Shown piece by piece: positions 25,539-27,036 of a DNA stretch of 32,757 nucleotides. Within the stretch, counting starts at the first letter, position 1. Every line of letters begins with the position of its first letter. A program made the position numbers and the translations under genes. Source of the DNA: Cyanobacterium sp. T60_A2020_053 (GTDB lineage Bacteria > Cyanobacteriota > Cyanobacteriia > Cyanobacteriales > Cyanobacteriaceae); contig JACYMF010000028.1 of NCBI GenBank assembly GCA_015272165.1, forward strand, positions 1 to 32,757, in the 5' to 3' direction. The notes below the pieces were generated by a model. It saw only the letters and a list, made by a program, of their open reading frames with translations, was not told where the DNA came from and ran no database searches.

Positions 25539-26740
25539 TAATATACTTCAACGTGCCAGCGCTCTTCTTTTTTCATTTGTTTGCGCATAGTATCCCAATT
25601 CAAACCTCTTTTTTCTGCTTCAGCGGTGAAAGTTTCAGAAATAGGAGGCTCCATACCTTTTAAACCACACATATAAACATGGGTGTTAGGTTTTTGGATC
25701 AACTCAAAAAGTTCGTCAGCATATTCACTAACTCGACTTTGCACATATACTTTACCACCGTCAGCAGTTTGCTGTTCACGACTGATAGCATAAGTTAAAC
25801 GGAAATTATCGGGATATTGTTCCACCATTCTCTCTAATTCTTCTTTATAAAGAATATTTTGAGTGTAGGGAATACCGAAAACTAACCATGCTAACCCTTT
25901 AAATTGATAATCAGGGTTCATTTCTTGCTCCTTAAACATACGCCATAAGAAAGCGCGGAAAGGTGCAATACCAGTACCCGTTGCCAACATAATGATGGTA
26001 GCATCTTCATCGTCAGGGAGTAACATTTCTTTACCCACAGGACCAGTGATAGATACATCAGCGCCCTCCGCCAAGGAAGTAAGATAGGAAGAACAAACAC
26101 CTTCCACCATTTCACCAGCTTCGTTTTTGTATTCTAATTTACGCACACAGAGAGAAACGGTTTTATCGTCTAACTTGTCACCGTGACGAGTAGAAGCGAT
26201 GGAATAAAGACGTAATTTATGGGGTTTACCCTTGTCATCTTCTCCGGGGGGAATGATACCGATACTTTGCCCTTCGAGGTAGTGAAGATCACCACCAGAG
26301 AGATCGAAAGTCAAATGACGTACAGTGCCACTGCCACCCTCGGCGACTAATTCATAGTTTTCAATACATTTGCCCACAAATGGATTTTTAGGGCGATAGA
26401 TGTTAACAGGTACTTTGACCTCTTGTTTTTCTTGTGCTTGAGTCATGGGTTGATGGTTCGTGGTTTGGTTAGAACTAGAACTTAGACCGTTAGCTGGAAC
26501 AGGTGTATTAATGCCTATGGGAGTAATATTGACAATTTTACCACCCAAGCGATTAATCCTCGCCATTTCTTGATTCATGCGAGAGTAAGGCACAGCGATG
26601 AAACTACTGCCACTCTGACGAATCGGATAGTCTAAATTATTGCTAGTTTGATTGGCAATGCCTACCACTTCAAAGAGAAAACGGCGTTCCTCAATGGCAG
26701 GATTGGTTGCAAATGTCTTAACTGTATTATATTTTTTCAT
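25538..26740 (-). CDS. petH: Ferredoxin-NADP+ reductase with N-terminal CpcD-type linker domain
   Basis: This is the 400-residue three-domain PetH of cyanobacteria. Residues about 17-76 are a CpcD-like phycobilisome linker domain ([28 protein letters not shown]). A hinge rich in Pro, Ser, Asn and Thr follows (77-98), then the FAD domain (RLYS at 177-180, CSSYL) and the NADP domain ([10 protein letters not shown] at 255-264) ending in EERWHVEVY with C-terminal Tyr400. It passes electrons from ferredoxin to NADP+; the linker domain docks the long form on phycobilisomes. A strong AAGGAG precedes the start and overlaps the stop of the upstream CpcD-like gene, so the two are co-transcribed. Met99 lies at the hinge and could start a short isoform. 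Confidence 0.97.
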
Positions 26741-26760
26741 TATTGCTAAAAATTGACTCC

Positions 26761-27036
26761 TTATGCTTCTGCCGTTGCTACTGCTTGAGGGGTGACGGGC
26801 GCTACAATACCGATGGGGGAAATGTTCATGATTTTTCCGCCTAAACGGTTAATACGATTCATTTCTTGATTCATACGAGCGTAAGGTACAGCAATAAAGG
26901 TGTTCCCACTAGAACGAATCGGATATTGTTGATTATTGTCACCATTTTGGACAATTCCCGACACTTCAAACAAGAAACGGCGTTCTTCAACAAAAGGATT
27001 TTTAGCAAACGTTTTTACAGCTTGAGCATTTCTCAT
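26761..27036 (-). CDS. Free-standing CpcD-type phycobilisome linker next to petH
   Basis: The 91-residue protein consists almost entirely of a CpcD domain ([44 protein letters not shown]). It is a paralogue of the N-terminal domain of the PetH encoded 20 bases downstream: [16 protein letters not shown] and [22 protein letters not shown] are shared. Canonical CpcD rod caps start differently and are encoded with the phycocyanin operon. It could cap phycocyanin rods, compete with or modulate PetH docking, or pair with it. AGGAG lies 11 bases before the ATG. An operon with petH is likely; the exact role is inferred. Confidence 0.82.

What the first reader, a model, noticed from the sequence alone, without database searches (positions are those of the whole stretch)
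26446..27036. Free CpcD domain encoded in an operon with PetH and resembling its N-terminal domain
The 91-residue linker shares more with the PetH linker domain, including [16 protein letters not shown], than with textbook CpcD. Either it arose by duplication of the PetH domain, or it reflects the ancestor of the fusion. A protein made from the same message could compete with PetH for phycobilisome sites and so set the bound fraction of the reductase.
Basis: partly seen in the sequence, partly recalled or inferred. Interest (0 to 1): 0.55.

Follow-up and report, generated by a model that had tools for sequence, protein, structure and literature searches.

The report
Antenna cap copied from NADP reductase
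In this cyanobacterium the usual gene for the protein that caps the light-harvesting antenna rods is missing, and a copy of the antenna-docking domain of the enzyme that makes NADPH, encoded just in front of that enzyme, has probably taken its place.

Summary
A 91-aa CpcD-domain protein (26761..27036, -) lies 20 nt upstream of petH (25538..26740, -) and shares its N-terminus (64% identity). Trees place it among the PetH linker domains of its own family, not with rod-cap CpcD. An AU test on 60 selected rows rejects a clade with rod caps (p=1.8e-9); on 126 rows it did not (p=0.068). Its upstream DNA is homologous to the petH leader of the six family members without the gene. So it is most likely a duplicated PetH domain that took over the petH leader, not a moved cpcD and not a relic of the fusion's ancestor.

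The pair occurs in 9 of 15 family genomes, amid otherwise unlike neighbours. None of these nine has an ordinary cpcD, nor do three genomes of a distant genus with an independent PetH-domain duplicate; a third lineage has a duplicate with an in-frame stop. Most likely it is a PetH-derived replacement rod cap using FNR's docking site. That its ratio to FNR-L is set on one message is inference; docking, competition and co-transcription are untested. New variant of a known kind.

The parts
26761..27036 (-). free CpcD-domain linker, 91 aa, PetH-derived
25538..26740 (-). petH, ferredoxin--NADP reductase with N-terminal CpcD domain (residues 19-74 match PF01383), 400 aa
26444..26446 (-). ATG of PetH residue 99, candidate internal start of the short isoform FNR-S; inferred from position and from published FNR-S starts in other species
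   Evidence: PMC9319322 passages
26741..26760 (-). 20-nt gap between the two genes
26757..26762 (-). AAGGAG, ribosome-binding sequence of petH overlapping the stop codon of the free gene
   Evidence: seen in the sequence
27037..27122 (-). leader of the free gene, homologous to the petH leader of family members without the free gene; includes AGGAG at 27049-27053 and a promoter-like site 27122..27094
25318..25344 (-). terminator-like hairpin with T run behind petH

Best explanation
Supported by sequence: the linker-domain part of petH was duplicated in a common ancestor of two genera of this family. The upstream copy became a stand-alone linker and kept the ancestral petH leader; the start of FNR-L now lies behind it, with a ribosome-binding sequence overlapping the new gene's stop codon. 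The ordinary rod-cap gene cpcD is absent from the genomes that carry it. Inferred: the free protein docks, as CpcD and the PetH domain do, on the linker at the core-distal end of the phycocyanin rod and caps it in place of the lost CpcD. Inferred with less confidence: cap and FNR-L come from one message and use one dock, so their translation ratio sets how many rod ends carry the reductase.
For: Family tree and AU tests; N-terminal -KTF- in 9 of 9 free copies and 14 of 15 family PetH but in 0 of 3 family rod CpcD; homologous leader in the 6 family genomes without the free gene; pair in 9 of 15 family genomes while no other window protein has a match (blastp E up to 1e-8) in the 4.2-8 kb around petH fetched from 14 other family genomes, one antisense frame apart; dN/dS 0.018-0.338 over 36 pairs of free copies; no ordinary cpcD in the own genome or in the 8 other tandem genomes of the family, nor in the 3 tandem genomes of g37; published structures with CpcD and the FNR CpcD domain on the same PF00427 site (PMC10322944 passages).
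Against: On 126 rows the AU test did not reject free copies plus rod caps (p=0.068). PetH of the family as a clade without the free copies is not rejected (p=0.096), so the exact branching is open. Outside this family the trees do not part rod CpcD from PetH cleanly, and one rod row (G042) falls outside the rod group in the 60-row tree. Many genomes have neither ordinary cpcD nor duplicate (13 of 60), and G012 has lost the copy, so a cap of this kind is not indispensable. No RNA, protein or binding data.
Confidence: 0.6

Rival explanations
1. It is the ordinary rod-cap cpcD, moved from the cpc operon to petH and made PetH-like by gene conversion.
For: It is the only free CpcD besides the ApcC-like linker in the genome; NCBIfam names it rod-capping CpcD; the 126-row AU test did not reject grouping with rods (p=0.068).
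Against: 60-row AU test p=1.8e-9; shared N-terminus and leader with petH; nucleotide identity of free copy and own petH domain is 64-69% in all nine genomes, without sign of recent conversion; the NCBIfam model also scores the PetH domain over its cut-off (99.4 against 80).
Confidence: 0.06
2. Its main role is translational: a short upstream cistron between the petH leader and FNR-L that tunes FNR-L against the internally started FNR-S, with little structural role of the protein.
For: Leader taken over from petH, tight 20-43 nt spacing in 9 of 9 genomes, ribosome-binding sequence at or near the stop codon; FNR isoforms depend on the translation start (PMC9319322, PMC4143364 passages).
Against: The protein is a full CpcD domain under purifying selection; the independent g37 copy lies 171-177 nt from petH with a hairpin between, where such coupling is unlikely.
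Confidence: 0.2
3. A redundant duplicate without a selected function, on its way to loss.
For: Lost or collapsed in G012; copy with in-frame TAA in G608; free copies change faster than the PetH domain in dN.
Against: Intact in 9 of 10 g1 and g5 genomes, dN/dS well below 1 in 36 of 36 pairs though many dS are saturated.
Confidence: 0.08
4. It is a relic of the free CpcD that once fused with FNR.
For: Adjacency and similarity are what such a relic would show.
Against: It branches inside one family's PetH domains, and the two intact tandem groups are not one clade (AU p=8e-4).
Confidence: 0.01

Closest known systems
CpcD, rod-capping linker of phycocyanin rods (PF01383; NCBIfam NF058509)
   Same: free small protein with the same domain; model score 103.9 over cut-off 80; fold match to CpcD 7sc8/8tro
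   Different: by descent nearer to PetH; N-terminus and leader of petH; not beside cpcC, where 39 of 43 non-tandem free ORFs examined lie (of the other 4, two are contig-end pieces of PetH and two are one CpcC piece and its neighbour)
N-terminal CpcD domain of FNR-L (PetH; NCBIfam NF058510, PDB 8hfq chain m)
   Same: closest relatives by tree; shared N-terminal -KTF- motif
   Different: not fused to the reductase; its own start and stop
C-terminal CpcD domain of CpcC rod linkers
   Same: same Pfam domain
   Different: part of a long linker with PF00427; weaker similarity
ApcC core linker (LC7.8)
   Same: small free CpcD-domain protein
   Different: the genome has a separate 67-aa ApcC-like gene behind two phycobilisome genes

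Membership tests
CpcD-domain linkers (PF01383) | match over the curated cut-off | tested here: met
   75.5 bits, cut-off 27
rod-cap CpcD (orthologue) | NCBIfam rod_cap_CpcD model over cut-off | tested here: met
   103.9 bits against 80, but the PetH domain also passes (99.4), so the model does not discriminate
rod-cap CpcD (orthologue) | groups with rod CpcD in a domain tree | tested here: not met
   groups with family PetH; AU p=1.8e-9 on 60 rows; p=0.068 on 126 rows
rod-cap CpcD (orthologue) | gene beside cpcC or in the cpc operon | tested here: not met
   beside petH; cpcBA and cpcC lie on other contigs
rod-cap CpcD (function) | located at the core-distal rod end and limits rod length | not testable with these tools
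   needs proteomics, cryo-EM or a mutant
PetH-derived linker | nests in PetH domains of the same family, with the same N-terminus and leader | tested here: met
   a place just outside the family's PetH is not rejected (p=0.096)
PetH-derived linker | co-transcribed with petH | not testable with these tools
   only consensus scans

The most novel reading that the evidence does not exclude
Rod caps are repeatedly re-made from the reductase: lineages that have lost cpcD regain a stand-alone cap by duplicating the docking domain of PetH, and in this family the new cap stands between the petH leader and FNR-L, so that one message fixes the ratio of capped to reductase-bearing rod ends.
Probability: 0.35. 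Interest if true: 0.68.

Novelty: new variant of a known kind. Interest (0 to 1): 0.5.

Why it matters
A 2022 study still calls the role of FNR attachment to phycobilisomes unknown before its own work (PMC9319322 passages), and it is unexplained why cryo-EM of ordinary phycobilisomes shows CpcD but not FNR on the rods (PMC10322944 passages). Here a free cap and the reductase share one locus and presumably one dock, in genomes with no other cap gene, so deleting or swapping one small gene would test competition for the rod end directly. It also shows that the automatic name 'rod-capping linker CpcD' can hide a replacement by a gene of other descent.

Tried and rejected
A search of 290 genomes of the class listed only part of its matches, so it gives no count of adjacent pairs. 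An NtcA-type site (recalled motif GTA-N8-TAC) was sought in 260 nt upstream of the free genes of ten genomes and of petH in six: one match in 16 regions (G003), none in the window; a nitrogen-control scenario was dropped. Three of five AU tests did not finish or were not needed in that call's set (two unfinished at zero time, one unfinished after 93 s, one not needed); the rest was asked again on 60 selected rows, all 36 rows of the two tandem groups with their families plus 12 rod and 12 PetH rows of my choice. The FNR catalytic-domain tree does not resolve the order of the genera, so loss of cpcD cannot be dated against the duplication in this family. Recent gene conversion was considered and found unsupported. 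Literature searches listed no paper whose title or abstract start describes a free CpcD gene beside petH; I read only listings and the passages cited, and most subscription papers are not held.

Full report
What is there. On the minus strand the window holds a 91-aa ORF (27036..26761), a 20-nt gap, and petH (26740..25538, 400 aa). The ORF is a CpcD-domain protein (PF01383, 75.5 bits). Its N-terminus carries the same motif as PetH, and identity is 64% over residues 2-87. The ribosome-binding sequence of petH overlaps the ORF's stop codon. A consensus scan finds a promoter-like site before the ORF, no terminator-like site between the genes, one behind petH and one inside petH; it found about as many sites as shuffles, so it merely fits an operon.

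The genome around it. PF01383 finds four domains in the assembly (118 contigs, 99.84% complete): PetH, this protein, a rod linker CpcC (C113) and a 67-aa ApcC-like linker (C7). No other free cpcD was found. PF00427 gives five matches: the CpcC, a CpcG-type linker (C10) and three in one long ApcE-like frame (C23). In the stretches read, cpcBA (C86), cpcC (C113) and the CpcG-type gene (C10) have no other linker gene beside them. So the usual cpc operon is dispersed here. ApcE, CpcG, cpcBA and ApcC are named by recall and domain content.

Distribution. In the family (15 genomes) the pair is in 5 of 5 genomes of the own genus g1 and 4 of 5 of g5, 0 of 2 of g3, 0 of 2 of g4, 0 of 1 of g2. An ordinary cpcD beside cpcC is in 3 of 15 (G005, G007, G010). 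Of the 60 genomes, 10 have a petH-linked free copy, 37 an ordinary cpcD, 13 neither, 0 both (Fisher p=1.5e-5, but the ten come from two lineages, so this is no independent test; nine of the 60 gave no petH row in my set). A pattern for two close copies (spacer 267-327 nt) in 388 genomes of the order finds the nine family genomes and G608. A pattern for wider spacing (387-447 nt) in 389 genomes at least 90% complete finds G047, G063 and G065. Other spacings, and copies with other codons at the motif, would be missed.

Origin. In a quick tree of 126 domains (50 CpcC rows, 12 low-scoring rows and four further rows left out) the nine free copies join the 15 PetH domains of the family (97*), while the 39 rod CpcD rows form one group (90). 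In a careful tree of 60 of these rows the free copies are one group (99/99*) within the family's PetH set (100/93*); one rod row, G042, falls outside the rod group, and rod CpcD lie amid PetH of other families. AU tests on the 60: free copies with rods rejected (p=1.8e-9); g37 copies with rods rejected (p=1.1e-7); both intact tandem groups as one clade rejected (p=8e-4); family PetH as a clade without the free copies not rejected (p=0.096). On the 126 rows free copies with rods gave p=0.068, so the short domain alone is not decisive. Two further signs agree. The N-terminal -KTF- lies before the domain; it is in 14 of 15 family PetH and 9 of 9 free copies, and in 0 of 3 rod CpcD of the family. 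And the DNA upstream of the free gene aligns with that upstream of petH in the six family genomes without it (G005, G006, G007, G009, G010, G012): TTAAGACAAACTTTA and TCAGGAGTATATTAA recur with few changes. So the new gene stands behind the old petH leader, and FNR-L now starts behind the new gene.

Upkeep. In the 4.2-8 kb around petH fetched from the 14 other family genomes, no other window protein has a match, save one weak antisense frame in G009, whereas the pair recurs in eight of them. Over 36 pairs of free copies dN/dS is 0.018-0.338, over the PetH domain 0.040-0.225; many dS exceed 1, and free copies have the higher dN as a rule. G012 belongs to g5 by its catalytic domain (group 86/89, nearest G008) but has one copy. 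Its upstream flank aligns with that of G014 as far as the free gene, and its petH with G014's petH; the first 15 codons are nearer to free copies (69-73%) than to petH (58-67%) in four comparisons, the later windows mostly nearer to petH. This looks like collapse of the pair by recombination, on slight evidence.

Independent repeats. In genus g37 of family f5, three of six genomes carry a free copy 171-177 nt before petH. It nests in g37 PetH domains (97*). There petH keeps its own leader and a strong hairpin follows the free gene (z -3.2 to -4.7), so one message is less likely. PF01383 finds no ordinary cpcD in the six g37 genomes. The FNR tree puts two g37 genomes without the copy among those with it, which suggests loss. 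In G608 (83% complete) the copy before petH has an in-frame TAA after MNEEM; no ordinary cpcD was found there, nor an ApcC-like match, so absence is weakly shown. It was not put into a tree; its sequence and leader resemble PetH of named relatives.

How it probably works. Published work shows the CpcD domain of FNR on PF00427 of CpcC2 at the rod end, bound like CpcD (PMC10322944, passages); FNR without that domain is absent from isolated phycobilisomes (PMC9319322, passages); CpcD and FNR-L are both found in both phycobilisome types (PMC6479007, passages). A model of the free protein (pLDDT 71, pTM 0.53) matches CpcD and the FNR domain best, at TM-scores of 0.47-0.57, which adds little to the sequence. 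The likeliest reading is a replacement rod cap with the dock of FNR-L. That joint translation sets the ratio of cap to reductase is a hypothesis.

Compared with the known. By domain it is a CpcD-family linker. By descent it is probably not a cpcD orthologue, although NCBIfam would name it so; that model also scores PetH over its cut-off. FNR of Gloeobacteria lacks the CpcD domain (PMC10696076, passages), so the fusion is old and this gene a later offshoot. Marine Synechococcus with phycoerythrin lack cpcC and cpcD (PMC2246261, passages), so loss of cpcD is known; a free cap regained from PetH was not in the listings that I searched.

Noticed in passing
L089:2387-3597 (-), genome G002: The petH frame is broken at a run of A between linker domain and FAD domain, in a one-contig genome; sequencing error, slippage or a real split were not told apart.
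   Followed up: no
L096:1-2624, genome G012: petH without the free gene in a genus that otherwise has it; flank and leader like G014, first codons nearer to the free copies: possible collapse of the pair.
   Followed up: partly
L205:1339-2829, genome G608: A third, apparently separate PetH-domain copy before petH, with an in-frame TAA after MNEEM.
   Followed up: partly
L089, L090, L091 (G002, G003, G004): Synonymous divergence of the free copy (0.52-0.97) far exceeds that of the neighbouring petH domain (0.09-0.19) between the same genomes.
   Followed up: no
L133:1683-1853 (G047), also L179 and L180: Strong hairpin directly behind the g37 free gene and a separate petH leader, so this tandem may be two transcription units.
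   Followed up: partly
L206:1838-2916, L003:802-1674, L207:1417-2166 (own genome): Phycocyanin genes are dispersed: cpcBA, cpcC and a CpcG-type gene each stand without other linker genes in the stretches read.
   Followed up: partly
L112:1537-2324 (G030), L114:1554-2155 (G057): Two ordinary cpcD-like genes in tandem behind cpcC in two genomes.
   Followed up: no
window 25538-27036: The NCBIfam rod_cap_CpcD model scores both the free protein (103.9) and PetH (99.4) over its cut-off of 80, so it cannot tell the two origins apart.
   Followed up: no
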